Origin: Planoprotostelium fungivorum
Lineage: Eukaryota > Evosea > Variosea > Cavosteliida > Cavosteliaceae
Assembly: GCA_003024175.1 (NCBI GenBank)
Contig: MDYQ01000119.1
Coordinates: forward strand, 20,142 to 84,141
Length of the DNA stretch: 64,000 nt
Reading direction: 5' to 3'
How positions within the stretch are numbered: position 1 is the first letter of the stretch; every line of letters starts with the position of its first letter. The translations under genes and the position numbers were made by a program. The notes beneath the pieces were generated by a model. The model had not been told where the DNA came from and searched no databases. It saw only the letters and a list, made by a program, of their open reading frames with translations. Below are positions 25,927-61,530 of the stretch, piece after piece.

Positions 25927-28900
25927 TTACACATTCTCGAGACCCATCTTGCTCGAGTTGGCGTACATGGCACTTCCAGTCTCTGGTGTCTCTGACACGT
26001 TGGGTGGTCTGTAGCCCGACGTGGCTGGCACGCCCACAGAGTGGTATTGCTCTCCGGCCGCGCTGAAAGCCGAATAGTTGGACTGGGGTTGGGCGTCTTC
26101 TATGACTTCGACGTCATCGATCTCCTTCACTCCAAAGGCAGAGTTGAGATAGTCCGTGATCTGAAGGAAATCGGGTCTGTCCTCAGGCTGAGAGGACCAG
26201 CATTCTGTGGAGGGTCAGCTGGTGAACAAGTGAAGTGGGGGTGGACTCACGTTGCATGAGCTCGGAGAGGGCGGGGTGACAGTCCTTGGGGATGTCTAAT
26301 CTCTTTCCTTCGTTGATGACAGCGAAGGCGACCTCGATGGGCGTCATATCGCCCCAAGGTTCTTGGCAAGTCAAGATCTCCCAACTGAACAGAAGATCAG
26401 CGATCGAAACATACATTTTGGTCCTCACATGACCACACCGAAGGAGAACGAGTCCGACTTGACAGAGTACTCGCGATCGCGGATGGCCTCGGGGGACATC
26501 CACTTGATGGGACCGACGTTGGATTGAGTCTGTTGTGCACTGTCCTTGTCTACGGTCTCTCTGGACATACCGAAATCAGAGACCTTAGGTTCCATGTGCT
26601 CGCTCAGCAGAATCTTCGTTGAGGTCAGTCTGATACAGAATCTCTCGTGGAACTCACGTTACGTACGGCGAGATCTCTGTGGATGATCTTCTCCTCGTGA
26701 AGGTGAAGCATACCCAGCGCTGTTCAACGTCATTTCCCGCCTTTTTGTAGATTCGAATCTCAAAAACTCACCGATCTTCTGGATGAAGTAGAACTTTTGG
26801 CTCTCTGGTACAGCCTCGGATCTGTTGAGGTAACTGTGAAGACTGCCACCACCGCAGTACTCAGTCAGGAGAGACAGAGGCTGAGGAGGGAAGGTGATAC
26901 CCAAACTGATGACGTGTCATCACATAGTATGACGTCACAATCACTCACAAGAGCACGACGTTGGGGTGACCTCTCAAGTTCTGAACGATCTGTACCTCGT
27001 GAAGGAAATCTCGGACTTGGGCTTCTGTGACGTATTCGGCACGGATCTGCTTCAGCTAATGTACGTCTCAGTTTGATCTAAGAGATCTCGCGGAAAACTC
27101 ACCGCCACGGTCATGTTTCTCCATGTCGCCTTGTAGACGATACCGAAGGCTCCCTGTCCGATCATGACCTTGTCCTTCAGCTCCTATGAATAGAACGTCA
27201 GCCTCCCCTCCTCCCATCATCCACTCACGTCATAGTCCACGACCGATCGCTTGGCTGCACCGAGGTTGATGTTGCTCATATCGATGAGATCCAACTGATT
27301 CGTGATGGTTCTCGTTCTCAGTCTGGCCACGAAGAAGAGGGCCACTACCACCAGTGCCACGAAGATGATGACACCCACGGCGATACCACCGATCTGTCCC
27401 GAAGACAATTTCTTCTCCACGACTTGGCTGCTGCCGCTGGACGCGTCCGCTCCCACGGGTGTTCCGGCGCCAGTGATTCCGTAGGAAGCCAACTGAGTCG
27501 AGTTCAACGCGCGCAGGCTGTCGAAGGCTTGCTGTGCGGTCATCTCGTAGTTGACGAGGGCGGGAGAGATGACGAAGACGAGGTTGTAAGAGATGGCTCT
27601 CTTCTGGACGGGCGCGGTGGAGTTTTGCATGGCGATACGCTTGGGGTCGATCTTGAGGACGTCAGCGATGAGGTTGGTCACGGCAACGGAGGAGTAAGAG
27701 TCCATGTTGAGGGTGACCGTCCACTCGACGAGGACACCGACCGTCTCGGTCACTTGGCAGCGAGTGTTACAGTTGATGTAGACCCACTTGGAGATGGGGC
27801 AGACGAGGCTGTGAAGAGTCAGAGGGATGTGTGGAGAGCGTCGTTCACTTGTTGTTGCCGATGTCACAGAGAGAGAGGGAGGGCAGAGAATCGATATTGA
27901 CAGTGGTGAAGGCGTTGTCGTTCAGTCTGAGGGTAGACAAGTTCATGTTGGACAGAGAAGAGGGAATCGATCCACTCAACTGACATACGCGTCAGAGATT
28001 TGGATTCCGTTCGATCTCCGCGCTCACCTTGTTGTACGATAGATCCAAAGATCTAAGGGACTTGAGATCTGAGATGGAGCCGGTGAGTGAGCCAGAGATG
28101 GAATTATGACCGAGGGACAAGGTGGTCAGATTGTACAGGGTCACGAAATTGGAAACGTCGCTGGTGATCTGATTGTACGACAGGTCGAGCGTGGTCAGAG
28201 ACTGGAGTCCTACGGCATTGAAGTTGCTGAGTTGGTTGTTCGATGCGTAGATGGACTTGACGTTGATGTTCTGAATGGAATCGGGGAGCTTTCCTTGGAA
28301 CGTGTTGTTGTACAGTCTGATCGAGGTGAGAGCCTGGGAGGGTCAGGGGAGGAGTGGCGAGTTGTAGACGGATCACCTTGTTGTTACCGAACATGTCGGG
28401 GATCTGTCCCTCCAATTGGTTGCGAGAGACATCTGCAACGGTCAGTTCTCTAGAATAGATCATCATTCTATTCACCAAAGAAAGTGAGGCCATTCATGTT
28501 GGTCGTGAGAGCTGGCATGGTGGAGATAAAGTTGTTGTTGCTCAGATCGAGGTAGGTGATTTTGTTGAGAGAAGACACAGAGGAGGGAACAGGACCCTGG
28601 AACTGGTTCTGAGAGATGTCCAAGTAAGTCACACCGGGAATCTGTGACCACACGTCGGGGAGGCCGCCGGACAACTGGTTCTTCCTGGTTTCGCGTAAGT
28701 GATTCATTCGAATGCGAAATTGAAATAGAAGTGCGACTCACGCCAGATTGAGGTAAGTCAGTCGAGTCAGCTGAGACAGAGAAGAAGAGAGGGAGCCCGT
28801 GATGAGGTTGTTGGCCACGTTAAGATAAGTGAGGCCGGTGAGAGAGTAGTAACTCGGTCTCCAAGCATCAGCCAGACTGTTGTACGACAGATCTAGGTAA

Positions 28901-31900
28901 GTCAGGGGAAGCTGAGCGAGACTGTCCGTCAAGAAGGTGAGGCCGTTGTGAGACAGATCCAACCGAGTGATGCCCTTGACGTACTGCAGAGAGTCCAGGG
29001 CAGCTGAATTCGAGAAGAATTGATTGTGCGTGAGACCGAGGTAGGTCAGTCGATTTCCCGCTACAAACACGGGTGTCGAACTGAGGAACTGATTGTACGA
29101 CAGATCTGTATGCGTTTAGGGTTTAAGAGCTGGAGATGAGATATACCTAGGACTTGAAGGTTCGAGTTGCCCAGGCCGTTGGGAAGAGCGTCGACGTATT
29201 TGTTGTCACTGGAACTATGTGAGACAAAAGAAAGATCGCAGAGATATCACCTGACGTTGAGGAAGGTCAGAGTCGCTGCGGTACCTGCTGATCGTGAGAT
29301 CGTGAATCGATGAGATGAATAAAATGAAATAAATCACCGTAGACGGACAGGAGTGGACCGGCGAAACCGTTCGAAGAGAGATCTACGTGTTGGATGTTCT
29401 TCATCAAGCTGATGTCAGGTGTAGATCCCGACAGGTTGTTGTGGGACACGTCGATGAACTGCAATTTGGTGCAGAAGAAGATGTTGTACTGCATGGACTG
29501 CACGAACATGTTGTGAGACATATCGTAGTGGATCAAGTTGGACATGGCAATGGGGTCCTTCAAGACTAAATACATCAGTGACCGTTTGAAATGATAGCAT
29601 CACCGCTGAAGAGGTTGTGCGACAGATCGAGGTAGAGCATGGATGGTGTTCCAGTGTTCTCTCCAAAGCCAGGGATGGAACCGAGTAGAGTGTTGTACGA
29701 CGCGTTGAAGTACAAGACACTGGATAACAGACTGAAAGAGGGATCCAACTGTGTATACGTCAGCGAGAATGAGATGGATGTAGGATCTCACTCCGTAGTT
29801 GACACCCAGCTGATTGACGGACATGTCGATGTACCTCCAGTTCGAGTGCGGAGTCAAGGCGGGAACATCACTGGTCATGTTGTTGTTGGAGAAGTCTACC
29901 ATCGATCAGATGTCGATCTCGATGTTGTCCTCGACTCACCCAGATGAACGATGTTGTTGAGTGTCATCAACAGATGGAAGTTGCCAGAGACACCGTCGGC
30001 GGTGAAGTGGTTGTGTGACATATCGATGTACTGAACCTTAGCACCGAAGAGGGGGATGTTCGAAGTGATGTTGCAGTGAGAGATGTCACAGTGGATGAGA
30101 TTGATTCCGTTGCAAGCGGTCTCCAAGACAGTCGTGATGCGTTCGTTGTAGCTGAAATCGAGGTAGACCATGCTGGGTCCGTCGTACTTTGCGATGTAGT
30201 CGACGTTGTTGTGAGAAGCGTCCACGTAGGTCATGTTGGGTAGCAGGCACCAGTAGTAAGGCACGGAGATCAGAGTCTTTCCGACGGCGGGGTCATACTG
30301 GTAGGAAATGTCGACATAAGCGAGACTGACTTTAGCAAAATCGAGCGGGGGGTCTGGTACGGTCGAGAGACGGTTGTGAGAGATCTTGAGGGTGACCAAG
30401 TTGTACACTTTGCCCCAGCCGATGGTGCTGGCCCAGCCAGAGAGGAGGTTGTGGCTCAGATCGAGGTAGACGAGTCCGGTGATGGCCTCGATGTCAGGAA
30501 TGTCTCCGGATAAATTGTTGTGGGACATATCCAGGGTGACCAAGGAGACCATGTTTTGAACGTCGGGCATGGGGCCTGTCAGGAGGTTCTGAGAGAGGTT
30601 GAGGAAAGTGAGAGAAGTGCTCTGGAACAACTCGGCTGGGACAGCATCGATCACGTTGTTACCCAGATCGATCCTCGTCAGGGTGCTCAAGCCGGTGACG
30701 TTCACGAAGGAAGAAATGTTGTTGCTGTTGAACTCGATGGACTGGAGCTGTGGGTTGTTGATGGGTGGAATTGAATTGAAAGCGTTGTGAGAGCAGACAA
30801 AGTTGGAGAGGTGGGCGTTGCTGGGGAAACCGTCAGCCGGCCACTGGTTGAACTTGTTGTTGGCAATGTTGAGGGTAGTGAGGTTGGTCATCGAAGAGAT
30901 GTCAGGGAGAGCACCTCCGATCTGATTCCTGACCAAGTGTGAGATTCCGTGGAACGAAGAATAAAATAGAATAAAATCACCCGGAGATATCGAGGGTAAA
31001 GAGAGTCGAGGGAAAGAGGCTGGGATCGAACGTGGTCAACTGAGAAGAGTGAGAACCTCCATCTACAACGAGCCATCACCTTGTTTCGACTCAGATCGAG
31101 CGACCTGAGAGTGCTCATCGCACTGAGCGACTGGATGGACTGGATCTGATTTCCACTGAGAGAGAGAGTATCCACGGCGTTGAGAGCAGACAGATCGGGC
31201 AGCGACGTGATGTGGTTGTCGTCCAATAGAAGGTAAGTGATCTTGATGATGTTGTTGAGGTCTTCGGTGGGGATGCTCTGTATCAAGTTGTTCTTCATGT
31301 TGACCGTTCCACCGAAGATGAGACTCCAAGCGTTGACGAAATTGGGGAGGTAGCTCAGTCGGTTGCCCTCTAAATTGACGTACTTGAGGTTTGCGTTCTG
31401 CGATCCAATCATGGGCTGAACGTAACTGATGAGGTTGTAGCTGAAGTCGATGTATGTCAGGGCAGTCATCGAAGTGATGTCCTGAGGGGATTAGAAGTGG
31501 CTCGTTGTAGACGAGTGACTCACCCGAACGTCCGAGGTGAGGAAGTTGTGGGCGAGGCTGACCCAGGTGAGAGAGGTCGACTGGTAGAAGCCCGGGTAGA
31601 TGGCAGCACTGATGTTGTTGTAGCTCAAGTCCAATCGGCTCACGCCGAAGCCTCCGGGAAAGGAAGGCACGGCAGGGAAACTGTTGCCGGTGAGATTCAA
31701 GGCACCACCGATGTTTCCGTAGAGGGTGGCCGCGAAAGAAGTCAAGAGGGGGTTGTTCCTGATGTTGACGTCGGTGTTGATGTAGACTCCGCAGCCCGAT
31801 TTGACCGCTGTGTAGGAACACCAGTCGATGGACGTGAGGATGGGGTTGTTCTCGATGAAGATGGACTCCGCATTGAGGGCAGACTTTCCTGCATCGGGGG

Positions 31901-32604: not shown

Positions 32605-32973
32605 GTTGTGGTTGGATTGAAAATGAAGCGCCCCTGCCACAACAGTCGAGGAGGGGAACTCCTTAGGATGCCGTCTCTTTGATACGCGAAGAGACGTTCT
32701 CAGCTCCGATGGAACGTCAATGCCTATTCCTTTTAGTAGTCATGGAAACGACCACTTGATAAACTCTCCGGAGGTGGAGCGGTCAACTCCTTTGGGGCAT
32801 CACAACACACCACAGAGACGACACAAGATGGTGGGGCTCATCACGACGGAAGTTGATTTGTCTCTGATGCACGTGGGGAAGAGGTCAGAAAGTCGTTGTC
32901 ACAACCGGGAACAAAGTGAATGATGGCGAGCCGATCGGTTCGTGTGATTATTATCTCTTTATTCAATGGCAGT
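32605..32973. promoter_or_regulatory. Upstream region of the giant LRR receptor gene
   Basis: Between the receptor start (32604) and the 3' end of NDUFA12 (32974), both on the minus strand. A TTTATTC/GAATAAA element at about 32,955-32,965 lies just upstream on the plus strand, i.e. immediately 3' of the NDUFA12 stop on the minus strand, and fits a polyadenylation signal. No ORF with supporting features. Confidence 0.35.
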
Positions 32974-34224: not shown

Positions 34225-35643
34225 TTACTGCAAGTCGAAAGAGAAGGAAGTCAAGTTGCGGTACTTCTGCCCGGGCGAGAGAACGGAGGACCGGGCGTAG
34301 TCCGTCCTGTTGATGGAATTGGGAGGCACTTGCGTCTCCAGACAGAAGGCCCCGTGGTGCGTGCAGTTCTTACCGAAAGACAGCATGGTCGACGTCAGAA
34401 AGTTTCCGGTGTAGAGCTGGATGCACGGCTGGTTCGTGTGGACTCTGAGTCGAATGCCCGTAGATGGATGAGAGGCCGTCGCGGCGAGGGACATACTTTC
34501 ACCTGTTCCCATCAGTCTTGACTTTGTATCGAAGTCGTCACCAGTGGTGGCTGTCTTTGGATCTTTTCCAGAGAGAAAAAAGTTGTGGTCGATGTCTCCA
34601 AAGGAAGAGAAGAGGTCAGAGAAGGCCTTGGGCTCGACGTTGACTCCCTTCAGGCCGGAATTTTCGATCGAAATTTCCTCGCCGGTGACGAGACAGTCGC
34701 CGTCGACGACGTCGTATCTACAACGAGTCACTCTCCCCTCGCTCCCAAGCTCTCACCTCTCCGCCTCCAATCGGATGAGGTTGTCGTCGATCTTGACGTC
34801 CGTGTCAACACCGGCCAAGTTGAAGTAAGAATGGTTCGTCAGGTTAACGATAGTCTCTTCTTTCGTCTCTGCAGTGAATTCGTAGGACACGTGTGAGTCT
34901 GAGACGTAATACTTGAGATTGACTTGAAGTTCACCGGGGTAACCTGCGAGAATCATTCGTGGAAAAAACAGGCGGGAACGGTACCTTCTTCACCGTCTGG
35001 ACTGATGAGGTGGAGTTCTAAGAGGGCGACGCGATCATCGTGACAGACATCCTTCAGTGATTGAGGGCGGTCGATGATCTCAAATTTGGCGACGGACCAG
35101 AATCTCTTGTCGTATCCAAATTTACCTTCGCGAGGTCATCAGACATGATCCATCGTGATGGAGTTGAAGATTAGATGTCCATGTTCACCTCCGTGAAGAG
35201 CGTTTGGACCATTGTTTTGGGCCAGCTGATGTTCTTTTCCGTTCAGGTTAAATCTTCCTCTGGCAATACGGTTGGCCACGCGACCCACAGAAGCGCCAAA
35301 GTAAGCTGTTCGAATGATGTGAGAAGAACATTGAAAAATCATTCTAAAAAGTGCACCTGGGTGATCGATGTAAGACTGAACGTCGTTTTGACCGTATACG
35401 ACGTCGACCATCTTTCCGCTCTTGTCTTTGATGCGAATATAGACAAGAATAGCTGTTACATTTTCTCATTCACCAGAGTTCGGTGCGATCCTTACCTCCA
35501 AAGTCAGTGAATGCTGCAGTGAAGCCAGAGCTAGGATCAGTGACTGTCAAGAGCTCAGCATGTGTCTTGGAAGTCGGTTCGTGAGAACTGAGAGAGGAAG
35601 GGGCAGGTGCCCATTCAGACTTGCGAGTGAGTTCGAGTGGCAT
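34225..35643 (-). CDS. galM: Aldose 1-epimerase (galactose mutarotase)
   Basis: Interconverts alpha and beta anomers of hexoses, the entry step of the Leloir pathway, in the cytosol. The N-terminus (MPLELTRKSEWAPAPSSLSS) is followed by FTAAFTDFG and the family block FGASVGRVANRIARGRF, containing the NRI arginine, then NALHGG. Downstream come VNLTNHSYFNLAG, with the catalytic His of the N-H-SYFNL motif, FGDIDHNFFLSG, and the C-terminal CLETQVPPNSIN, with the catalytic Glu. All catalytic residues known for GalM are present. Several introns of about 45 nt. ATG 35643 is the first in frame; stop at 34225. Confidence 0.9.
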
Positions 35644-35940
35644 GCTCTTCGGTGGTGATGAGGTGGAATGCGATCTGTCTGTCAGTTGTAATTTACAACC
35701 AAAAATACACCTGATCTATTTTTCTCAAGTAAATGAATGCTTATGCACAATGACCGTGCAGTCAGAGAATGTTCTATGATGTGAGATGTTTTATTCTTTC
35801 CATCGTGGTCTGAATCTTTAAATTGAAAATTAAAATCACGAACAGATTTTCTCCTGTTTTGCCGAAAATCACAAATCACCGCAAGAGTGACAGAGAGGGA
35901 AGAGAAACAACAGCCCTTCGTATTCCGAGGTGGACATCGA

Positions 35941-45000: not shown

Positions 45001-47632
45001 GGGTATGATGTCGTTGATTGGGTTGTTTGACAGATCCAACACCTGTTGTTGATCAGAAGAATTCTAGGGTGATGAGTACCTTGATGCTGGGGACAGAGGT
45101 GAAGGGTTGCAGTGTGCCAGAGCCCAAACGGTTGTTGCTATCAGATGTCAACAGATGAGATGTCGACCACTCACCCCAGTATGACAGTCTGCAGCTGAAT
45201 GTAGTACGATCGGTCAATCGGGTTCAATTTGGGCACACCATGGAATTGGTTATAAGATAAGTCGATATACTGCAAATTGGGTGGTAAGACCGATGACATG
45301 AACACGAGAGAAGAAAAGTTATTGTGAGACAGGTCCAAGTACAGCAGAGCTTTGAAATTATTGGATCTGAAGAGATGAATCAAGTTGTCTGCGGATGACT
45401 CACGTGAAGATCTCGGAAGGTGTTGCGTCCGTTGGATCCCTGTTGTCGAATGGTATTCCGTTGAACTGATTGTGTGAGAGATCTAGAGAGATCAGGCTAA
45501 CTAGGGACTTGTTGTAGATGAACGTCTGCAGCAGATCAGAACGGTCTCTCCAAGGTCACACCTCTATGCCCGACGTCAAACGGTTGTAGCTCAACGATAG
45601 AGCAGCTAATGGAGCTTTGATGAACGGAACCGGCAGAGCACCTCCGAATAAGTTGTTGTCTAAAGTGAGGATCTTGAGGTTGGGGTTGGAAAAGGTGGGG
45701 AGAGTTCCGGCTGAACGAGTCAGAAGCAGAAGCGTACGATGCACCCACTCAGCTGATTATGATCAAATCTTAGGACTCCAAAATTACATTGACAATAGCC
45801 TGTGGGGATACCACCCGTGAACTGATGGGTTCAGTCACGAAAATGTGATGGGATAATCTTTTTGGGCAACTGACCTGATTGTTTGAAACGTCAGCGTAAC
45901 CTGCCTCGTAATCTGAAAAGCACACGGCAACTGGTGGGAGAGCACCTGTGCACGTCAGTGTCACATGTCAGTGTTATCTCAGACACCTGCGAACTGGTTG
46001 TTGTTGATCGACAAGTGGATCAAACTGCTGAGGTTGGCAGCAGATGGAAACCTTCCTTCCAGTTGGTTGAACGACATGGAGAGTGTGCGGACAGAAGGTG
46101 GTAGAGAAGCGACGGTACCGGAAAAATTGTTGAAAGACAGATCCAGATATTTGAGACTCTGCAATTGGAACAAAGGTGGAATGCTTCCAGAGAGACTGTT
46201 CGAGGGTTGGCAAGATCGAACACCATTGACTCACGAATTGTCATTCAGTGAGATCGATTGGAGGCCAGATATGTTGAAGAGAGACGGTGGAATGCGACCA
46301 GATAACAGATTTGTACTCAGGTCTAAAGTGCTCAAGAGAGTGGTCCGTTGAAACATGTCTGGTATCTCTCCTGAATAGAATGATTTAACGTTTACACGAT
46401 ATCAATGAGATCACCATAAAACAGGTTTCCAGACAACGTAAGAGACGTGAGTTTCGTCATGAGAGTCACGTTAGGTAGAGGTCCAGCGATCTGGTTACCA
46501 GCCAGGTTCAACTCTTGTAGTGATGTACAGTTTGTAAAGTCGATCGAACCTGTCAGTGAATTGCCCGACAGATCCAGCGACTGCGAAGGTCAGAGAGTTT
46601 CGATCGGGTCTCGCACCTTCAAGTGGCAAGGGAACGACAACTCGAATTCTCCCTTGAAGTTGTTGCCATCCAGTCTGGCAAACTGAAGGTTGGTGCAGTT
46701 CTTGAAAGAGGGCATCGTATCTACACATCTCTCAGGGGATGTGGTGAAGGTCTACAACTCTCACCTTGTTGGAGAGCGTTGTCATTGAAGAGAAGGCGCT
46801 CGATGTTGCACACCTCTGGGATCACTAGTTTCATATTGTTGCCGTACAGGAATAGACTCTTGATTTTGAAAAATCCAGCCGGTGTGTCTCCCGTGAGGCC
46901 CAAATTACCGAGGTTGAGAAAATCGATCTTCGTGTACTGCGTGAGCAGATCGAAATCAATCAACAGGACGTTTGAGATGTCGAACAGAGCGAAGTACGTG
47001 AGATGCTTGACGGGCACCAAGGCTTCCGTGGCTCCGGTCAGATTGGTTCCGTAGCATGAGCTCATGTCGAGATATTCGAGGCTGGGTGGCAGAAGTTTCA
47101 AATACCAATTGGTAGACCCGTAAACGTAGGTGAGGTCCAGATGAGTCAGTTGAGTCATGCGGCTCAGATCGGGGAATCCATCATCGTCAAAGTTGAAGCC
47201 GTTGTAAGCCATGCTGATGAATTGGAGGGTCGTCAGGTTCGAGAAAGAATTGGGAATCCTCCCTGAAGACGTGTGAGACTGTAGACCACGGAGATGCACG
47301 ACTGTGAGGTCGGACGCGTGCAGATGTGAAGTCCTTACCGTAAAGGTTGAAGTAGTCCAACTCGAGATGAACGACGGTGCCGTTTGTATCACATCCGATA
47401 CCATCCCAACCATCCTCGCAGGGGTCGGTGGTCTGATCCCAGGGTACCGAAGCTCCGTAATCTGAGAGGTTCATTCAGAAATCTCCATCAATTGACGATG
47501 CTCACATGGCCCGGTGGCCGTCCAGAGGTCGAGGAGGATGGTTTTCACCTCAGCGGATGCGGCAGCTTGCACTCCCACAGACAAACAGCTCAAGAAGAGG
47601 ATGACGAGCAGACATTGTCGGCCGCGCACCAT
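42012..47632 (-). CDS. LRR receptor tyrosine-kinase-like protein with repeated YA(D/E)A tail
   Basis: ATG 47632 begins a signal peptide (MVRGRQCLLVILFLSCLSVG), then an LRR N-cap (DPCEDGWDGIGC) and LRRs from about 47,400 to 44,200. A membrane-proximal domain (~44,110-43,640) with CPISLSARQRC precedes TM (GTIVGVIVGVAVLITVAVVI) and YRRR. Juxtamembrane: MSNMNMSPVEKSILCYEEL. The kinase is intact: IGSGA/FGIVFS, VAVKQ, IIHRDLAVRN, VADFGMSRQ, IRWMAPE. The tail ends HYAEAD...HYADANAGYADADAN, three near-identical Y-A-[D/E]-A units that look like a phosphotyrosine array. Paralogue of the receptor at 25927-32604 in kinase, juxtamembrane and membrane-proximal regions. It converges with the gene ending at 41816, only 195 nt away. 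Confidence 0.86.
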
Positions 47633-51283: not shown

Positions 51284-52465
51284 ATGGTGAGTTCATCCTC
51301 GGTAATTCATCCTCTAAAGAGGCCATCCGTTCGTTCGTCGAGTCTTTTTCGACTCGAGATGGATGGTCGATGGGAGATGATATGATTGGAATGGAGATCT
51401 GATGGATCGCACAGCCCTTCATCAAAGTACAGAAGAACAAGGCTTACTTCAAGCGCTTCCAGGTTAAGTACCGCAGGAGACGTTGTGAGTATCCATTCCA
51501 TCCATATCCACATCCACTCGTCCATATCCATCCACATCTCACTCCACACGCACCATCTCATCTTCTCATTCTAATCTCCATCTCCAGCCGGAAAGACCGA
51601 CTACCAGGCCAGAAAGGCCCTGGTCGCTCAGGACAAGAACAAGTACAACTCTCCTCGCTACCGTCTGGTCGTCCGTTTCACCAACTCCGACGTCATCTGC
51701 CAGGTCGTCTCTGCCAAGATCGTCGGAGATGTCGTCCACGTTGCTGCCTACTCCCACGAGCTCCCCCGTTACGGAGCCCCAGGAGGTCTGACCAACTACT
51801 CCGCTGCCTACGCTACCGGTCTGTTGGCTGCCAGACGTACCCTGACCAAGTTCAACTTGGCCGACAAGTACAAGGGTAACGAGACCATCAACGGAGAGGA
51901 CTACAACGTCGAGGAGATGGACGACGGACCCCGCCCCTTCTACGCTGTTCTCGACATTGGACTCAAGAGAACCACCACCGGTGCTAAGGTCTTCGCCGCC
52001 CTCAAGGGAGCCACCGACGGAGGACTCAACATCCCCCACACTGAGAAGAGATTCGTTGGTTACGATAACGAGGCCAAGAAGCTCGACGCTGAGGTGAGAT
52101 AGGTTCTATCCTCGTGCATGATGATGACAATGAGTGATGCTGATGGATGTGATCAGGTCCTGAAGAAGCACATCTTCGGAGGCCACGTTGCCGACTACAT
52201 GAAGAGCTTGAAGGAGGAGGACCCCGAGAGATTCCAGAGACAATTCAGCTCTTACATCAAGGCTGGAGTCAAGGCTGAGGACATTGAGGGAAGATGGGGC
52301 AAGACCTTTGCTGCCATCAGAGCGAACCCCGCTGCCGTCAAGAGCACCAAGGGCAAGCCCGCCGACATCAAGCACGCCAAGCAGGTCAGACTCACCTACG
52401 CCCAGAGAAAGGAGAGAGTTGCTGCCAAGCTGGCTGAGATCAAGGCCAAGAGATCTGAGGAGTAA
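51284..52465 (+). CDS. RPL5: 60S ribosomal protein L5 (uL18)
   Basis: Binds 5S rRNA and joins the large ribosomal subunit. The ATG at 51284 stands alone as exon 1, followed directly by a ~130-nt intron; exon 2 then reads [20 protein letters not shown]. Later exons carry [41 protein letters not shown]-type [26 protein letters not shown] and a basic tail ending AKRSEE. All are hallmark eukaryotic L5 segments, at full length. Codon use is far more biased than in neighbours (GCC, AAG, GTC, CTG almost exclusively), as expected for high expression. Introns are 50-130 nt. Confidence 0.95.
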
Positions 52466-52638
52466 ATGCTCCCCGTGTTCTATTCCACACTCTGATAAAG
52501 ACCTCCTCGAATTAATTGCATCAATTCAGACACAATTGAGCTCGATCGGTGTCTTAATGTGTCCCATGTGATGTCAATTTTGCGTGTTTCAATCGGTTGT
52601 GCCGAGCGGAAGTGTTGAGAGACTCTATTTCCGCATAG

Positions 52639-53201
52639 ACAGTAACATCCACATGTCGGTCGTATATCCTCACCTCCAGGCGTGATAAACCACTTCCGTT
52701 GGCCCTCTACGTCTTCAGCAAGAGCTCGGCGACGGCCGAGAGAGTCATCAACAAAACGAGAAGTGGAGCGGCCGTGCACAAAGACGTCATCGTTCAGTTT
52801 TTGAATCCTAAATTGCCATTTGGAGGTATGATGTTTTATTTCATTTGATGTCTGATGATGCTAGGTGTCGGTGAATCAGGATTGGGTGCCTACCACGGTG
52901 AGTCGTGATGGATGTGATGGGAGGAAGCTGATGAGATGACAGGCAGGCAGACATTCGAGACCTTCGTACACCGCAAACCCGTCATCAAATCGACAAAGTA
53001 CAACTCTCTCGACATCAAATTGAGGTGTCCTCCTTACAATGACAAGAGTGAGTCATTCACATCGTCGATTTGATTCGATGCGATCATCGATGTGATGTAC
53101 TGATGTGTGCAGACGTGGGTGGTGGACAAGGTGACCCGCAGTGGATTGTAGAGAATAAATCAAGTACAAACAATCTTTTATTTCACCTCCTTGATCAATG
53201 A
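52639..53201 (+). pseudogene. 5'-truncated ALDH3-type aldehyde dehydrogenase fragment
   Basis: From about 52,681 the frame reads RDKPLPLALYVFSKSS, then FLNPKLPFGGVGESGLGAYH and FETFVHRKPVIKS across three short introns: the C-terminal quarter of a class 3 (fatty) aldehyde dehydrogenase. The NAD-binding part, catalytic Cys and catalytic Glu are absent. An in-frame TAG lies at 52,636-52,638, no in-frame ATG precedes the homologous part, and RPL5 ends only ~215 nt upstream, leaving no room for the missing ~300 residues. The introns keep canonical ends and the frame is otherwise open, so truncation seems recent or the remnant is under selection. The end near 53,201 overlaps the convergent SH3 gene by about 24 nt. 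Confidence 0.72.
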
Positions 53202-54553
53202 ATTAGCCAGCTGCTCCATCACAGGCTTCACCTCTTCGTAACTGCGCCACGTCATCATTAAATCGACGATTTGATGATGCCTCACCTGACGAGAGAGATG
53301 TTCTCCATCAACTTCGTTATGGTACTCAGGTTCCCCTGTTGATTCGCCATGCTCCTTGCGAGTTTTCCCGCGTGATCCGTCAGCACCTGATGGTATCTCA
53401 ATCGTTCATTTCGATGTCACCCTTACCTGACGAGATTTCGCTTCCTTTTGTACAGCCTCAGCCAGAGTGAGCAACTTGTCGTGAAGTTCAGGTTGCAATG
53501 TGTTCAAGCTGCGGGCCGCTTGGATGAATTCTTCTACGGAGGATAAGAGTTGGATGGTGTTCAGAAGCATCAGTTTGTCGTCTAATACTTCGGCTCTCAT
53601 GTTTAATAGTTCCTGGAGTCATCATCAGAGTCGATGACGACAATGGATGGGGTTAATCCACGTAGATAGTTCATATGTATATGTTTATCAGATCCACACA
53701 TATCACATTCAAATCTAAATCTAGAGATGGATCTACGGAAATAGTTGGCCTCTCACTTCATTCCCTCGGATGATCTTATTACGCTTCTCAGATACTTCCT
53801 TCTCCAACAACTTCTTCATCTTGATCTTTCATCATGTGAGATGCATCATCTCGTCATCTCAGAAGTGATCTCACCTGATCGTCGGTCTGGTGTTGAATGT
53901 CTTTCATCTCAGCGATGAGATTCTTTCTCTGCTCTCTCCTCTTCGTTGAAGCCTCATCGGCTTCTTCTAGTTCCCCATCATCCGCGGCGCTCGGTGGTGG
54001 TGCATTCAAGTTTCTAAATGACTTGCGAGACGCTCCAGGCGAACTCGGTGTATCACTAAAAACATCAGTTGATCGATGGAATCGAGATCATTTGAATGAC
54101 ATACGCTGTCGAAGGATCTTCTTCTTCAGGTGGAAAATCGACCATGGCCAGAGGGAATACACCCAATTCTCCGTTTGCCAACTCGAATGGATGTGAGTCG
54201 AAGATGGAATCAACCGATGTGTGAATTCACCTGACCTCTGGCCCAACCTTCTCCCAAATCTTCTATGAAGCCAACGTAATCGTTCTCTTCGAAGTTCAAT
54301 TCTTTCTCTTCTTGTGCCTTCCATCGGTGTCAGAGATTTATATCATCTCATCGGTGCGACTCACGATATTTTGATACAACGCCTTTCCCCAACTCGTCAC
54401 TTGTGAGAAGTCGATCTCCCCTTCACCTTCCATCTCTTCATAACTCCTCTCCTCTTGCGCTGGCTCCTCTCCCTCATGGATGTCCTGGGGATCTTCATGT
54501 TCGTGATCTTCTTGGTACACTCCCTCCCCAGACTCCATCGCTTCCTCCGCCAT
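53178..54553 (-). CDS. SH3-domain protein with C-terminal coiled coil
   Basis: ATG 54553 begins a very acidic stretch (MAEEAMESGEGVYQEDHEHE). Across two introns an SH3 domain reads GKALYQNI, KELNFEENDYVGFIED, GEGWARG, ELGVFPLAMVDF: ALY, the acidic RT loop, the GW of the ligand groove and the FP--V end are all present. A Pro/Ser-rich linker (DTPSSPGASRKS) leads to long helices (KKLLEKEVSEKRNKIIRGNE, VLDDKLMLLNTIQLLSSVEE) ending IKEVK at 53178. The order acidic-SH3-coiled coil suggests a cytoskeletal or endocytic adaptor; the partner is unknown. Some 55-80 nt introns. Confidence 0.72.
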
Positions 54554-54749
54554 CTCTGATCTGGCTACCGACGACGGATATTTTCCCGTTGTAGATCATC
54601 GGACATTTTCGTCGGCCATACTTCATTCTGAACCAGAACGACATGTCATGACATCATCGATCGTGTCGAATAAAGAATACGGTCTGTGAATGACGACCTT
54701 CAGCTGCTCTCATCGTGCACAACACGAAGACGATGACAGTCTGTGTCGT

Positions 54750-57009
54750 TTATTTCGATGTGAATGGCAGGTGTCTCAGCAGTCCAACAGCAGATATGGC
54801 GTCTCCCAGCCCCACCGTCTTCAGAGGAACTTTACACACCAACACCGGTGCAAACGAGAAGGTCACTTGTCCCTCCTTCCACGAGTGAACCGCGTGACCT
54901 CCCTCTAATAAGATGTCCTCTGTCCCATACTCTCCCTTCTCAATCGACAGTGACACCTGCTCCCTTCAGTCAAATCCTCTCCTCTACCTCACCTGCAGCT
55001 CGGTGTCCTTCTGTTGGATGTTGTCGTTGTCACAGGCCTGTCGTGTGGCTGTGAGGCTTCCTGCGGTGACTGCGGCCGGTGAAGAGCCCCAAGAGTCCTT
55101 TGAATCGTTGGGAGTGAGTAAGATGTGATACTGCAGGCAGTGGAAGTGAATGCGGGTCACGTGACGGCCAGAGCGGGTGCGGGATACCACGTTGTAGATG
55201 AACTGGAGGGCGTCCAGGACCGTCCTGACCTGTTCTCATCTCAATTTATATTCACGCCGAAGATGATGATGATGATGCTGATGATGTTGCTGATGATGTT
55301 GCTGATCGTGATGATGTGATGCTGCTGATGATGATGTGTCGACGATCTCAGCCACAGTGCTGGAAGCTCACCTCTGGATGTGCAAACTGTTCCAGGGTGT
55401 ATCGCTTACCCCCCATGGCCAGATAGAAACTGCCGAGCTCCTGCTCGTTGAGCCCGATTGAATCCACTCTCGGCAGCAATTTCTCAGCGAGAGAACGGAT
55501 GAACTCGCCGTTCTTCATGGATGCCAGTTCAAAGTGAATGGGAACACTTCGGGGCAGTTGGTTGTCGTCGGTGAAATAACTGAGAGCGGCATCGATGGAT
55601 GACTTCTGCATCTCACTGGTCTGGACGTCTAATAGATGGAAGCCTGATATGACCACGACCTGTTTGACGTTCAGCGGATCGTTATTTCTCGTTGTAGATG
55701 GGAAATGAAGGAGGGAGTTTAGATACGTTGAGGAGGAGATAGAAATGGTGAATAGAGACCTGAGGGAATTGGCCTTGTGAGATCTTCTCGGTCAGTAGAG
55801 TGTGGAAGGGTTGCATCAACCTGTAAAGATGAGAAGGATGTCAAGAACGGACACACACTTGAGTTCTGCGTTGGTGGTGTCACTGTGGACGATGAAACGA
55901 TTGGCCCTCGGTGCCTTCAATCCATTGAAGTGAGCTCCTCTGGGGTATTCCATGATCAAATGGACCTGTCTCGTTTTATTCTTCGTCTACAACTCTTTCG
56001 TCCATTTTGATCCTTTATGATCGAATGATGTAGAAGATCGATGTGTAGGTAGAGGTGATATTGTGGAGGATATATCATTTGAGTTCATCATTCAATTACG
56101 TCACCTCATCTTCTGCTTGGTTTGATCTTGCAGTGGCTTTATCGTATTGAATGTCGGTTCTCTGAGGCACGACGACAGAAGGATGCAGTAACTCGCTCAA
56201 TTTCCCTCCCACAGCACCTCCCAGAATGACACTCTTGCATCCTTCCTATTCCTTATCAGTCGTCTATTATACTCCTCACGATGTCAGATATTCTAACGTA
56301 TATATCTCATCCATCCTCGCATTTAGACATCATCATCCTGATCACCTGTGCGAAGCGATTGGCGATGAGACCAGCATTGCCTCCGGTGAAATAGATCTTG
56401 TGTTCGAGCTGACTGGCTCGGGTCAAAATCTTGGACCACACATCAGCGTCGGCGAATCTGCATGTGACGTCACGAGGTGATGTTCCACGTCTCTCTCACC
56501 TCTCTGCGGCACTCCCTGTCTGGAAGAAATAACCAAAGACTTGACGGAAGTCGGTCAGATTGGACAATCGTTCTGCATCGATCCATGTTGCGGGTGGCTC
56601 GCTGTGTTGATGTCTCTTGTTCTCCTCATCGATTCCTTCCCTCTCTATTTCTGCAGAGACTTCTGCCGGATGTTTCGTGCTCTTACCTGTTAGGTAAAAT
56701 GAATCATCATTGAATGTAAATCCATGGGAAGGACTGACGCTCACCGTGATCAAAGTTGGGCTTAGCGAGACCCATGTTGCCCATCAGGTCCAACGCATTG
56801 ACGATCAGATCCAGATTCGAGTTGTACCCCACGGCTACTAAACCACATGGAACAACGGTGCTGATGTTCTCTACTGAGAGAAGAGCTCCGAGCACTTGTG
56901 ACTCTATCGAGGGAGATTGCACGGTGTCATGCAGGAAGAAAGAGGTCAACAAGGGATAGAATATCGCCAGAAGGACGAACAGAACAGACAAGGAGATGAT
57001 GGTCTTCAT
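54750..57009 (-). CDS. ADPGK: ADP-dependent glucokinase
   Basis: Phosphorylates glucose with ADP instead of ATP; animal ADPGK is ER-associated. ATG 57009 begins a hydrophobic anchor (ISLSVLFVLLAIFYPLLTSF), as in animals. The ribokinase-fold body shows VAVGYNSNLDLIV, an FF-TGSAAERF segment, FTGGNAGLIANRFA, VISGFHLLD, VPIHFELASM, GLNEQEL, HVTRIHFHCLQYHILL, VLVCKVPLKTVGLGDAIS with the catalytic Asp of the GxGD motif, and a short tail. These match human ADPGK block by block. One intron (55,205-55,370) is swollen by a trinucleotide repeat. It stands head to head with the phytochrome gene, 472 nt away. Confidence 0.9.
55255..55342. repeat. (GAT/CAT)n microsatellite inside an ADPGK intron
   Basis: Imperfect trinucleotide tract of GATGATGAT and GCTGATGATGTT units on the plus strand. 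It lies in an intron of the minus-strand ADPGK gene and makes that intron about three times the usual length. Interruptions (GTT, GCT, CGT) suggest an old tract. Confidence 0.8.
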
Positions 57010-57481
57010 CTGTGATGTTGTATCGAGATCTTCCGATCAAGCCATGAATAAAACAATAAACGGATGAATTTACATTCATTTTGAGCTTCAAAGATCTGAT
57101 CTCACGCTCGCTGGTGTATCTTCACGGTACACTAGCATGACTCCGACGCATCAACAATGATAGTATTCGAGTCAAGAATACAGCAACTATACAAGTCCTT
57201 AAATCCCTATCAGTACAACTACGGGCAAGTCCTGCGAACCATCTGAAGAATGACCGAGCCACACGCACACCCCACATTATCCTCTAAACTTCTGTTGGGA
57301 CTTGTGCACGGTTGTTGATAGGCAACTAGCGAACAGGGGTGAAGAAACGAGCCATTGTTCGACAGGTCGGAGTTCTATTGCAACGTGAGCGGAGTTCCTA
57401 TTGACAGATCCTCAGCAACAATTAAGAGGTTGAGTCGAATAAATTTGGATAAGTTAACTGTTCGCTCACAAGCGCTGGGAG
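57010..57481. promoter_or_regulatory. Divergent promoter region, ADPGK / phytochrome kinase
   Basis: 472 nt between two divergent starts. No ORF of note and no recognisable operator; a TTAAGAGG...AATAAATTTGG AT-rich patch lies at 57,420-57,450. Confidence 0.4.
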
Positions 57482-60400
57482 ATGGAGGAAGATAACTTTG
57501 ATGAGGTGAGAGCGATAGAACTGGAAATGGTTGGGAATGATTGACGGCATATCAGCTGAGCCCTGGACCCCCCACGAAGAGACAGAAGCAACTGCAGGCC
57601 ACACGGGCTGAGCACTATTTAAGCGACCCCAAGTCAGTCACGCTCAACAATTGTGACAAAGAGCCCATACACTTGATTGGTCAAGTGAGAGACACCATGA
57701 GAGGCCTCTTCTAACGTGGTATAGATTCAAGGGCACGGCTTTTTAATCATTACAGACAGCGAATTGAGCGTGCAGCATGTATCAATGAATGTGATCGAGT
57801 ATATGGGATGGCAGCCCAGAGAGATGATTGGAAAGCCTCTGGACAAATTCTTATCACCATTCCCTCTCACATACGACCAAGTTAAATCATACACCCAGAT
57901 TCAATTCAAAGAGTGCGATGCGGAGGTGAAGAATGGAGGATCTATCAGAGGATGACACACTACAGGTTCAACCCAAGACGAAGAAGCAATTTCCGGTCCA
58001 TTGTTGTGTCCACATCAACCGCGAAGGACTTCTCCTCATCGAATGCGAGATGATGATGGACGATGGCTTCGAATACGGACTTCACATCTCCCGCATATTC
58101 GACTCGTTCTCCGAGAATGGAGATCTGTACTCCGTGTTGGACACCGTGGCCGACCAGATCAAAACCACCACCGGTTACAATCGAGTCCTCATCTACGAAT
58201 TCGACGAAGAATACAACGGACGTGTCATCGTGAGCTCGCATGGACATCACATTGTCCACATGCTCATCCCACCCAGGTCGAAAAGGCGGATACAGACACA
58301 CGTTTCCTCAACTTACACTTCCCAACCACAGACATTCCCATCCAAGCGAGGGAGTTGTTTAGAAAGAATCGCTTTCGCATCATCCAGGACGCATTGAAAG
58401 CCACATCAGACATCACACCGAAGACGAGAGCTATCGACATCTCCATGTGCACTCTCAGAGCCGTGTCACAGGTGGACACATTTTAATTCCAGCGGAAATT
58501 CTGAAACGAGGGTAGATGCACGTGACCTACATGAAGAACATGGGCGTGAGAGCCTCGCTGACCATTTCGATTCTAGTGGGAGTGGAGAAGAGGGTGAGTT
58601 GTAGATGAGTAGACACTGTGCTGATGATGAGCAGCTGTGGGGTCTCATCACGTGTCACCACACTGGTGAGCCAAAGAACTTGAGTTATTCCAGGAGGAGA
58701 TACTGTGCCCTATTGGGATGCCTCCTCAGTTCACAAGTCGAAGCCATCTTACAGAGAAGAGAGGTGATGATGATCATCATCGCGATCATGTCTCACATGT
58801 CATCAGGTCCTGAAGAGGCTGAAGATGGAAACGGAAGTCTCCGCCGCGAAAGAATCACTCGTCATGTTAGACATGAAGTGTGCACCCTGGGACACCCTCT
58901 ACAAACTCTTCCCTGGTTGGGCCAAGATCATGAACTGTGAAGGTGATCATCCCACACGTTCCTCACACATCACTCAAACATCACAGGTGTCATGCTCTGT
59001 ACGGAAGATCGTAGTTATGCCTACGGATTGACCGGAAAATCTGTCAACCAGATCGTCTCGTGGGTTCGCACCCACGTCAAAGATGCAGACTCCTTTGTCT
59101 GCGGTGAGTCGAATTTTCCTGACCACATCTCATCGTCCTCCAGAATGCATCAAGGACATTGGTCTCACTTCAGAGGACGGACTGTGCTGCGGTTTCATGT
59201 ACATCAGACTGAAAGATGCCACTTACGCTGGTCTCTACTTCTTCCGTAACGAATACATCAAGAGCATCATCTGGGGTGGTGAACCGAAGACCCCCGACGC
59301 CCAGGGAAATCTGAATCCGAGGGTCTCGTTCAGTTCGTACAAGGAAGTGATGAGGGGTAGATCGTTACGCTGGGACTCCATCTTTGTCGAATACGCCATA
59401 CAGATCCAATCGATCATGACCAGGTGAGTTGTAGATGGAGGGAAAGACTGATTGGTGGAGGTACCTCTTCCGTTGGAAGGCAGAGAGACACAGAGTCGAT
59501 GCAGAGAGGGAGAGAGAAGAGGTGATGCATTGATGTCAGCGACACTGATTCGGACAGGTGGAACGATTGATGAGAGAGAACGAGATCACCCGACAGGCCG
59601 CCGTCATGCACAATAATTTCTTGTGAGTCATCGATCGTCGCATCTACAACGAGACACTTACCCCTCTAGGGCCACCGTATCTCACGAATTGAGGACACCC
59701 ATTCACTCTATTTTGGGTAACACCGAGAGATTGATCGACGCACAAAAGATGAACGGTGAAGCGAAACACGCTTGCTCCATGATCCGAAGGTACCTTGATT
59801 TAAACTCTAAATCCAGCGTACGATGACGACTCACCCGATCCAGTTCGAGCGAGCACCTCCTGGCCATCATCAGTGACATTCTCGATCTGTCAAAGTTAGA
59901 ATCGAGCCGTTTAGACATCCATCCTATCCCCTTCGATTTCTACAAGAAGATGGAGGGCATCAGCCAATCCTTATTTGCCGTGGCAAAGAACAAGGGCCTG
60001 TACATCAACTTACTCATTCCAATTGGAGTCCCTCTTCTCATGGCCGATGCCACTCGCGTGGGGCAGATCATCCTCAACTACATTTCGAACGCAGTCAAGG
60101 TGAGAAGCTAGACGATTCGATGCATTGAAGAGAGACAGTTCACCACGGAGGGTGGTATCACCATCAAAGTGGAGCAGATCGGAAGGACAAAATCGTCTAT
60201 CGATCTGAACTTCTCTGTGATGGATACTGGAATGGGCATCAACGAAGACGACAAGACGAAATTGTTCCAGAGGTTCTCCCAATTAGAGAACGGAAGGGCC
60301 AGGAAATACGATGGAACAGGATTGGGTCTATCCATCAAGTGAGACGTCGAATGACATCAACGATGTGATGGGACTGACATGAGACAGCAAACAATTAGCT

Positions 60401-61530
60401 GGGTTGATGGGAGGAGAAGTGAAGGTGGAATCAGAGCACGGTAAGGGATCGACCTTCAGTGTCAAGTTATCGATGGCATTCGTCAACGGCCAATCCAACA
60501 TGCACCCCCTATCCACCATCTCCCAAGTGAGAGATCCTCCATCTACAACCCGCCACCACCCTCTCTCATCATCCACTGACATCGACAGATCGAAAAACAA
60601 TCGAAGGTCATCCTCTTTGACTCGCGTCCGTTCGTCCGTGATTTCATCGATTGGTACAACCAACAGTGGAACGTAGACACCATCGTCGTCTCTTCACCAG
60701 AAGAAGCAGAGAGCAAATTCTCCTCAGACACCATGGCCTTCATCATGTCCATCGCAGAAGCAGACGCATCGACGTACAAGAGGCTCCACGAGAAGCTGGA
60801 GAAGGACTTCCCAGAAGCAACATCCATCGTCGTGGAATCAGCAGACATGCCATTAGTGGATGACCTGGGCACACACGTTCCCATCTTGATGCAGCCCATG
60901 AGCCCCACTGCCTACCACGCCATGCTGACGAAATCATCAAATCACATCACACCGGACGAGGTGAAGATTCATCGCATCATTTCTCGATTTGACTGCCTTG
61001 CGTCAGCCCGGGGAGCATGATAGACGCGCAGTTATTCGGACCGACGGGAGTGTAACCTTTGAGCAGGAGAGTACGGAGTCAGAAGACGTCGGTAAGCTTC
61101 AGCTCTTGATGGCAGAGGACAACAAGATCAACCAGATGATTGCACAGACTTTCCTCAAGAGTCTGGGACACGCGGTGAAGATCGTGGACAATGGAGACCT
61201 CGCGGTGCGAGCTGCGGCGGAGGAGAAGTTTGATGTCATCCTCATGGTGGGTTCATCGTCGATGAGATGGTGGCTGATGGGCTTCAGGACGTGATGATGC
61301 CAGTGATGGACGGTATCACGGCTACGGTCAACATCCGAGCGGCGGAGGCGGCCAAGGGAGATGGTGACTACACGCCTATCGTGGCCCTGACGGCTGCCGG
61401 GGAGTCTTCACTGAGAGAGGAATGCATTGGAAGTGGCATGGACGATTGTCTCTTCAAGCCGTTCCGGAAGATGGACCTACAGAAGATGCTCGTCAAGGTG
61501 GTCAAAGACTACAGAGCACAGAAGGGATAA
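57482..61530 (+). CDS. Phytochrome hybrid histidine kinase (PAS-GAF-PHY-HisKA-HATPase-pseudoREC-REC)
   Basis: Red/far-red photoreceptor of two-component type. N-terminus: LNNCDKEPIHLIGQ, then IQGHGF across an intron, the bacteriophytochrome-type N-terminal motif with the biliverdin-binding Cys. PAS (EYMGWQPREMIGKPLDKFL), GAF (FPTTDIPIQARELF; CTLRAVSQ then MHVTYMKNMGVRAS, with the chromophore-contacting His; LWGLITCHH) and PHY (IIWGGEP tongue; NPRVSFSSYKEVMRGRSLRW, PRxSF motif) follow. Output: SHELRTPIHSILG H-box, LNYISNAVK N-box, DTGMGI, GTGLGLSI. A degenerate receiver (~60,590-60,950) lacks the phosphoacceptor Asp, while the terminal receiver (61,090-61,530) has EDN, DVMMPVMDG and FKPF. About 15 short introns. 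ATG 57482 (MEEDNFDE). Phytochromes are known in Physarum; the spliced gene looks fully functional. Confidence 0.9.
59641..59653 (+). repeat. Copy of a recurrent intronic motif CATCTACAACGAG
   Basis: Representative copy inside a phytochrome-gene intron. Other copies, allowing A/G at position 2 and variation at the last three bases: 28358-28371, 31059-31072, 31501-31515, 34715-34727, 46750-46760, 54587-54596, 55688-55702, 55984-55995, 58596-58609, 59426-59440, 60539-60550. They occur in both orientations relative to transcription, in introns of five unrelated genes (the 54587 copy lies just upstream of the SH3 gene). Confidence 0.6.

What the first reader, a model, noticed from the sequence alone, without database searches (positions are those of the whole stretch)
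28358..60550. A 12-15 nt motif, C[A/G]TCTACAAC(GAG), recurs in short introns of unrelated genes
I count twelve copies of CRTCTACAAC or its complement between 28 and 61 kb: eleven within introns of about 40-100 nt (giant LRR receptor x3, aldose epimerase, LRR receptor at 46.7 kb, ADPGK x2, phytochrome x4) and one just upstream of the SH3 gene. I noticed none in the first 28 kb. A 10-mer is expected about once per megabase per strand, so this is far above chance. Copies sit in both orientations, at variable distances from donor or acceptor, and several share GAG/GG flanks. Possible explanations: remnants of introner-like elements that created introns, an intronic splicing or transcription-factor site, or a mobile-element footprint.
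Basis: seen in the sequence. Interest (0 to 1): 0.8.

Follow-up and report, generated by a model that had tools for sequence, protein, structure and literature searches.

The report
Invariant two-way DNA word in introns
Many of the very short introns of this protist carry the same almost unvarying DNA word, readable in either direction and rare between genes, which looks like a binding site that lives inside genes; a few of these introns are also copies of one another.

Summary
The recurrence is real and genome-wide. The window holds 11 exact CRTCTACAAC (0.16 expected). The genome holds 4664 copies of TCCATCTACAACGAGCCA with up to 3 mismatches (reversed control 36) and 287 perfect 18-bp palindromes (control 0). 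In 264 unselected kb the core TCTACAAC occurs 146 times per 100 kb of predicted intron, 21 in exon, 16 between genes; 53-54 of 841 introns carry the motif. The shared unit is only about 18 nt: beyond about 10 nt from the core, flanks are no more alike than unrelated introns, and motif introns are no longer than others. The core varies little (TCTACAACGAG: 37 exact, 1 core variant), works on either strand and can cross a 3' splice site into the exon. This fits a DNA-binding protein's site in gene bodies better than introner remnants. Yet two subsets are whole-intron copies in unrelated genes, one built on a second intron-enriched palindrome, TGACGTCA. Introns come from my own gene finder, without RNA data. 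Function, protein and species are unknown.

The parts
28361..28370 (-). Motif copy CGTCTACAAC in intron 28334-28376 of the giant LRR receptor gene (- strand), sense orientation
31060..31069 (+). Motif copy CATCTACAAC in intron 31040-31079 of the same gene (- strand), antisense orientation
31504..31513 (-). Motif copy CGTCTACAAC (followed by GAG) in intron 31482-31523 of the same gene, sense orientation
34715..34724 (+). Copy TATCTACAAC (one mismatch to CRTCTACAAC, followed by GAG) across the 3' splice site of the 39-nt intron 34718-34756 of the aldose epimerase gene (- strand): CTCGTTGTAG|AT
   Evidence: whole intron repeated in other genes; ungapped exon junction
46749..46758 (+). Copy GGTCTACAAC (one mismatch) in intron 46721-46764 of another LRR receptor gene
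54588..54597 (-). Copy GATCTACAAC (one mismatch) just upstream of the gene model 53178-54553; called intergenic
45511..45520 (-). Exact copy in predicted coding exon (reads ...FIYNKS...), probably codon-driven
55191..55200 (-). Exact copy in predicted coding exon (reads ...FIYNVVSRTRSGRH...), probably codon-driven
55691..55700 (-). Exact copy CATCTACAAC (followed by GAG) in a probable 67-nt intron (about 55660-55726) of the ADP-glucokinase gene
   Evidence: the later model reads it as exon; ADP_PFK_GK domain
55984..55993 (+). Exact copy CGTCTACAAC in intron 55966-56104 of the ADP-glucokinase gene (- strand)
58598..58607 (-). Exact copy in intron 58594-58634 of the phytochrome gene: GTGAGTTGTAGATG, motif touching the donor
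59428..59437 (-). Exact copy in intron 59424-59460 of the phytochrome gene: GTGAGTTGTAGATGG
59641..59650 (+). Exact copy CATCTACAAC (followed by GAG) in intron 59623-59669 of the phytochrome gene; ungapped exon junction NNF|LATVSHELRTP
60540..60549 (+). Exact copy CATCTACAAC in intron 60527-60588 of the phytochrome gene
6017..6067 (-). Predicted intron with the second intron-enriched palindrome (...TGACGTCATCAG), an example of the TGACGTCA class in the window
   Evidence: table and sequence

Best explanation
The motif is a recognition site for a sequence-specific DNA-binding protein, placed inside gene bodies, where the only non-coding room is in the roughly 40-nt introns. Consensus: TCC-A-TCTACAAC-G-AG-.CA. 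The 8-mer TCTACAAC varies little and the 4-7 nt on either side are preferred. The site works on either DNA strand. Two half-sites can sit head to head as ATCTACAACGTTGTAGAT, as expected of a protein that can bind as a dimer. Within an intron it sits where splicing signals leave room (mostly between donor and branch site), or it doubles as the 3' splice site (branch TGAC, then TCGTTGTAG|AT, last core base in the exon). A second such site, the bZIP-type palindrome TGACGTCA, behaves alike and is richest in the same domain of the one contig sampled. Copies are kept by selection on the core; in two subsets whole introns carrying them have also been copied into unrelated genes. Shown: enrichment in predicted introns, strand independence, discrete extent, low core variation, palindromes, copied subsets. 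Inferred: the protein, its binding to DNA rather than RNA, selection, and any effect on transcription or chromatin.
For: Density in W+C1: 61 cores in 41.7 kb intron, 34 in 160.6 kb exon, 10 in 61.7 kb intergenic; reversed core 1, 17, 3. Both strands with one extended consensus: 32 sense, 57 antisense among 89 sites. Information falls from about 1.8 bits per base in the core to near 0 about 5 nt to the left and 7-10 nt to the right. Flank identity in 95 single-site introns is near background 11 nt and more from the core: 0.19-0.28 against 0.25-0.26. TCTACAACGAG in introns: 37 exact, 1 variant within the 8 core positions, 18 in the last two. Genome-wide, changing the fifth core base (CRTCTADAACGAG) leaves 28 places, control 7, against 1733, control 4. 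In introns that end in GTTGTAG the next exon base is A in 36 of 38 whose picking did not fix it (24 of 24 in the sample, 12 of 14 fetched), against 33% in other introns. 287 perfect palindromes, control 0; 19 of 20 fetched lie in predicted introns. In a tandem paralogue pair a 24-nt block around the core is identical while the start of the intron differs.
Against: Intergenic DNA, which includes promoters, has few sites (3 cores in 22.3 kb against 84 in 26.3 kb of intron, in bins I chose as motif-rich), odd for an ordinary transcription factor. Motif introns lie further into genes (medians 1913 and 947 nt). Two subsets are plainly copied introns. With the other flank as anchor the core is less fixed: ATCTACAAC 70 exact, 30 single variants in the core positions where about 16 are expected; TCTACAAC alone has 60 single variants where 39 are expected. 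Low core variation could also mean youth: the fifth base is changed in about 1% of places. The 1733 places mix introns with exons: of 20 fetched, 10 sites lie in predicted introns, 6 in exons and 4 have no gene label on a 241-base fragment (one of these four, L102, looks to me like a missed intron). The conserved paralogue block could be gene conversion, as a neighbouring intron without the motif is also 90% identical, and my model misses the intron in one of the two paralogues. No protein, RNA or binding data.
Confidence: 0.45

Rival explanations
1. Introner-like elements: short (37-48 nt) mobile introns inserted into genes in both orientations, now diverged so that mainly the 18-nt cassette is recognisable.
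For: A 39-nt intron 85-92% alike over its whole length in aldose epimerase, C312/C51 (one duplicated locus) and C244; C107 matches over 41 nt at 90%, read as an intron by eye but not called by my model. TGACGTCA introns: 59 exact copies of a 24-mer, control 0, and a 42-nt intron identical at L041 and L043. 45 end-to-end similar pairs at 30 bits or more, reversed control 0; by my count 7 of the 45 involve no locus fetched because of similarity. Opposite-orientation similarity, e.g. 91% over 35 nt. Location mostly in genes.
Against: In motif introns picked by motif, flanks are near background identity. No terminal inverted repeats. No presence/absence seen in the second copy on C461. Paralogue comparisons not decisive: 2 shared, 1 near, 10 absent of 13 for motif introns; 82, 34, 238 of 354 for others. 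A decaying element should leave many core variants; few are seen with the GAG anchor. At 28 bits or more no end-to-end pair is in opposite orientation.
Confidence: 0.3
2. A very short mobile or copied cassette (18-22 nt, palindromic or half-palindromic) that enters gene bodies by some DNA repair or transposition process, leaving flanks unrelated.
For: Discrete unit with unrelated flanks, both orientations, palindromic forms, low core divergence compatible with youth.
Against: Motif introns are not longer than others (medians 41.5 and 41), so a cassette was not simply added to existing introns. At the two junctions checked no coding sequence was lost. Few copies between genes.
Confidence: 0.12
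3. An intronic splicing element acting at RNA level.
For: Enriched in introns; in the acceptor class the motif supplies the 3' splice site behind a TGAC branch site (20 of 47 have CTGACTC before GTTGTAG). Some motif classes differ in signals: branch word in 0.70 of sense and 0.33 of antisense-internal introns against 0.46 of others; GTGAG donor in 0.28 of palindromic introns against 0.47 (18-30 introns per class).
Against: Sense and antisense copies share the same extended consensus, which RNA recognition would not give. Offsets vary. No uniform weakening of splice signals. The core extends into the exon.
Confidence: 0.08

Closest known systems
Introners / introner-like elements (survey: Gozashti et al. 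2022, PMC9860276; I saw passages, and section 5)
   Same: Similar introns in unrelated genes reaching both splice sites (two subsets here); mostly in genes
   Different: For most copies only an 18-nt cassette is shared; no terminal inverted repeats found; the motif core is more constant than the rest
Intronic enhancers and intron-mediated enhancement motifs (recalled; only a search listing seen)
   Same: Short motif in introns
   Different: Intron-mediated enhancement sits near the promoter (recalled); here motif introns lie further into genes and the site is rare between genes
CRE/bZIP site TGACGTCA (recalled)
   Same: The second intron-enriched palindrome has exactly this sequence
   Different: Found in introns; two 10-mers built on it have 1 and 0 intergenic hits in 63 kb; in one family it forms 10-bp arrays inside introns (L047)

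Membership tests
Introner / introner-like element | Introns of unrelated genes alike along their whole length up to both splice sites | tested here: inconclusive
   Met for the 39-nt family and the TGACGTCA family; not met for motif introns picked by motif, flanks near background
Introner / introner-like element | Terminal inverted repeats (in the DNA-transposon type) | tested here: not met
   Longest head-tail inverted repeat 4.18 observed, 4.39 shuffled, n=117 motif introns; 4.89 and 5.19 for 27 TGACGTCA introns
Introner / introner-like element | Recent intron gain (intron present in one copy, absent in the other) | tested here: inconclusive
   No case in the C56/C461 second copy; 13 paralogue comparisons not decisive
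Introner / introner-like element | Target-site duplications | not tested
   Only a few boundaries looked at by eye
Sequence-specific DNA-binding site | Same extended consensus on both strands | tested here: met
Sequence-specific DNA-binding site | Sharp core with weaker flanks | tested here: met
   core less fixed with the left anchor
Sequence-specific DNA-binding site | A protein that binds it | not testable with these tools
   No binding data
Intron-mediated enhancement motif | Concentrated in promoter-proximal introns | tested here: not met
   Median distance from start codon 1913 nt for motif introns, 947 for others
RNA-level splicing enhancer | One strand only | tested here: not met
   32 sense and 57 antisense sites, one consensus

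The most novel reading that the evidence does not exclude
Introns of this organism carry a DNA-level address system: two dyad-symmetric words (ATCTACAACG/CGTTGTAGAT and TGACGTCA) that are read in gene bodies by dedicated DNA-binding proteins, are scarce between genes, vary by chromosome domain, and spread partly by copying whole 40-nt introns. This would give tiny introns a function at DNA level and a reason to be gained and kept.
Probability: 0.22. Interest if true: 0.87.

Novelty: new variant of a known kind. Interest (0 to 1): 0.62.

Why it matters
A site with an almost fixed eight-base core, used on both strands, found in several per cent of the introns sampled (53-54 of 841) and seldom between genes is not what promoter elements, splicing enhancers or classic introners look like. 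If it is bound by a protein, the introns of this protist are a store of gene-body regulatory DNA. If the copied subsets are the source, they are very short introners and show intron gain with a selected cargo. Either way, why a genome keeps perhaps a hundred thousand 40-nt introns (my extrapolation from 841 predicted in 264 kb) becomes testable.

Tried and rejected
Neutral remnants of introners as the general explanation: judged unlikely because flanks of motif-picked introns are near background identity and, with the GAG anchor, core variants are rare. Against this, other anchors show a modest excess of core variants. A first mismatch count used a background that contained the motif itself; it was redone with copies masked.

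Terminal inverted repeats or hairpin introns: head and tail of the same intron are, if anything, less complementary than shuffled pairs. I had first taken 'donor = reverse complement of branch site' for a mechanism; it holds only at consensus level.

Insertion of the cassette into existing introns: judged unlikely because motif introns are not longer. Cassette in an exon with an intron made around it: argued against by ungapped junctions, two cases only.

Presence/absence: the window from 51.7 kb to at least 60.6 kb has a second copy on C461, 98-99% identical over most of it and 94% at one end. It shows a 21-nt repeat difference in an intron without the motif and a 46-nt gap in a repeat labelled exon, but no intron gain; 7 of 8 core sites keep their context there. 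The sense intron 28334-28376 found no other copy by DNA search. Exonic copies: many read as I-Y-N, S-T-T or V-V-D codons. Codon bias and GC3 of motif genes are slightly higher, unexplained.

Corrected on rereading: a locus counted if any motif intron was called in it; by the picked site itself it is 19 of 20 palindromes, 16 of 20 CTGACTCGTTGTAG and 10 (not 11) of 20 CRTCTACAACGAG. The exon-base count 45 of 47 included 9 loci whose picking fixed the base or rested on similarity; without them it is 36 of 38. One search counts each palindrome twice.

Dropped rows: introns over 120 nt, over 200 nt (995 of 1000 kept) or outside 34-60 nt; pairs within one gene, the C1 gene pair 54/88, the C4 tandem paralogues and the L034/L035 duplicate. 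C4, C7 and C11 pieces were chosen because they hold motif copies; fetched sites were chosen by me from the first 100 listed, not at random. Papers: passages and section 5 of PMC9860276; all others as listings. Searches for 'introner' with 'Amoebozoa' and for CREB, TGACGTCA, intron and amoeba gave nothing on this; that does not show that it is not in print. Organism not identified; an amoebozoan such as Protostelium/Planoprotostelium was my guess from recall, untested.
Full report
Observation. One search finds 11 exact CRTCTACAAC in the window, all from 28361 on, with 0.16 expected. The excess is genome-wide (G000, 36.86 Mb in 471 contigs): CRTCTACAACGAG 1733 against 4 for the reversed word, CTGACTCGTTGTAG 409 against 1, the 18-bp palindrome ATCTACAACGTTGTAGAT 287 sites against 0, TCCATCTACAACGAGCCA with up to 3 mismatches 4664 against 36.

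Where it sits. No annotation was available, so I wrote a small gene-finding HMM and applied it to the window, to contig C1:1-200000 and to three smaller pieces chosen because they hold motif copies (C4:1-30000, C7:90001-100000, C11:116501-119500). It gives 1000 predicted introns, mostly 36-45 nt, with a CTNAY branch-like word near the 3' end in 470 against 139 after shuffling. On the unselected 264 kb (window + C1) the 8-mer TCTACAAC occurs 61 times in 41.7 kb of intron, 34 times in 160.6 kb of exon and 10 times in 61.7 kb of intergenic DNA; the reversed word gives 1, 17 and 3. Of places that I picked from the first 100 listed and fetched as 241-base pieces (one of 207), 19 of 20 palindromes, 16 of 20 CTGACTCGTTGTAG and 10 of 20 CRTCTACAACGAG fall in predicted introns; the other ten of the last group are 6 in exon and 4 without a gene label. 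One of those four, L102, reads by eye as an intron that the model missed. Many exonic copies in the larger sample read as codons, such as I-Y-N in one receptor and S-T-T in a Ser/Thr-rich receptor. So the genome-wide CRTCTACAACGAG count mixes introns and exons, while the palindrome is mostly intronic. Two window introns are backed by protein alignment with no gap at the junction: aldose epimerase 34718-34756 and phytochrome 59623-59669.

Anatomy. An expectation-maximisation search on both strands of 995 introns of at most 200 nt gives TCC-A-TCTACAAC-G-AG-.CA: about 91 introns, with 32 sense and 57 antisense sites at posterior above 0.5. The core columns are 93-98% one base, the neighbours 53-79% with one weaker column at 41%, and beyond them little or nothing. 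Single sites that do not touch the acceptor lie mostly in the donor-side half of the intron (51 of 63), and 31 antisense sites lie exactly on the acceptor: (C)TGAC-TCGTTGTAG|AT. In introns ending in GTTGTAG the first exon base is A in 36 of 38 cases whose picking did not fix that base (24 of 24 in the sample, 12 of 14 fetched by CTGACTCGTTGTAG), against 33% elsewhere. So the eighth core base is kept even though it lies in the exon. Motif introns have the same length as others (medians 41.5, n=54; others 41, n=764). Their splice signals are not uniformly weaker, but classes differ: a branch word in 0.70 of sense and 0.33 of antisense-internal introns against 0.46 of others, and GTGAG donors in 0.28 of palindromic ones against 0.47 (small classes).

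One unit, about 18 nt. For introns with a single site (29 sense, 31 acceptor, 35 antisense-internal; sample plus fetched by motif), identity between different genes is 0.47-0.73 right beside the core, 0.27-0.31 at 5-10 nt, and 0.19-0.28 further out, against a background of 0.25-0.26. Among TCTACAACGAG-like words in introns, 37 are exact, 1 has a change in the eight core positions, and 18 have a change in the last two positions. Genome-wide, changing the fifth base of TCTACAAC (CRTCTADAACGAG) leaves 28 places (7 for the reversed control) against 1733. With the left-hand anchor the picture is less extreme: ATCTACAAC has 70 exact copies, 22 variants at its first base and 30 in the eight core positions, where a Markov model expects about 16; TCTACAAC alone has 60 single variants where 39 are expected, with a reversed-word control of 119. 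Low variation at one base, about 1%, could also mean youth, so I do not claim that selection is proven. In the second copy of the window region on C461, 7 of 8 sites keep their context.

Whole-intron copies do exist. DNA search found the aldose epimerase intron at five places including itself: 39 nt, GT to AG, 85-92% alike end to end between the window, C312/C51 and C244, in genes with unrelated exons. C312 and C51 are identical over the 300 bases compared; C107 matches over 41 nt at 90% and looks like the same intron, though my model did not call it. A second intron class is built on the palindrome TGACGTCA. The word ATGACGTCAT has 15 sites in intron, 3 in exon and none between genes in W+C1 (which counts each palindrome on both strands). 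A 24-mer of its arrays occurs 59 times genome-wide, control 0. Two loci share an identical 42-nt intron (L041, L043), and L049/L050 share 37 nt of a composite intron with both motifs. These subsets meet the main test for introners. They do not explain most TCTACAAC introns.

Distribution. The motif and TGACGTCA are both scarce in C1:0-100 kb (2 and 2 of 260 introns) and frequent in C1:140-200 kb (36 and 20 of 217; Fisher 2e-11 and 8e-6; I chose these bins after seeing the counts). A 20-kb dispersion test over window and C1 gave 85.8 against a permutation maximum of 35.4 for the motif; for TGACGTCA 36.5, just below the permutation maximum of 37.1. Within bins, genes add no significant clustering (p 0.21). 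The motif-poor part of C1 contains a gene-poor, AT-richer stretch. Motif introns lie further from the start codon (medians 1913 and 947 nt).

Interpretation. Strand independence with one consensus, dyad forms, a short and little-varying core, discrete extent and constraint across a splice site are what a DNA-binding site gives. Scarcity between genes says that the function, or the process that makes it, is tied to gene bodies. I therefore favour a gene-body DNA-binding site (0.45) over introner relics (0.30), a tiny mobile cassette (0.12) and an RNA splicing element (0.08).

Limits. Intron calls are computational, without transcripts; the HMM was trained on its own test sequence and missed or shifted some introns, for example the one holding 55691. 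Only about 0.3 Mb of the genome was read. Relatives were not available, so intron age and conservation outside this genome are untested.

Noticed in passing
window 51716-60620 and C461:4059-14608 (L054, L056): The window region has a second copy on another contig, 98-99% identical over most of it and 94% at one end, with about 1.7 kb of extra DNA at C461:11984-13681. The copy of the gene at 51284-52465, which I took for ribosomal protein L5 from recall, carries 11- and 8-nt gaps in its coding part.
   Followed up: partly
window intron 58764-58806 against C461: A 21-nt length difference made of ATG/ATC repeats between the two copies; many introns here are rich in ATCATC/ATGATG.
   Followed up: no
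C1:1-100000 against C1:140000-200000 (L009-L028): Motif-poor and motif-rich domains of one contig; the poor part includes a gene-poor, AT-richer stretch at about 50-70 kb.
   Followed up: partly
L047 (C43:133900-134250): A predicted intron read as an array of about nine 10-bp units ACGTCATCAC, about one DNA turn each, from the TGACGTCA family.
   Followed up: no
introns with ATGACGTCA-like words: Single-base variants of the TGACGTCA palindrome are enriched at its CpG (C to T and G to A), as if the CpG were methylated and decaying.
   Followed up: no
starts of contigs C2, C4, C5, C23, C52: Five of the 100 listed CTGACTCGTTGTAG copies lie within 500 bases of a contig start, as if repeated introns had broken the assembly.
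   Followed up: no
W 30929 and C1 180346 introns: A possible third shared intron word, TGATTTTATTCTATTTTATTCTT, 23 nt identical in two genes.
   Followed up: no
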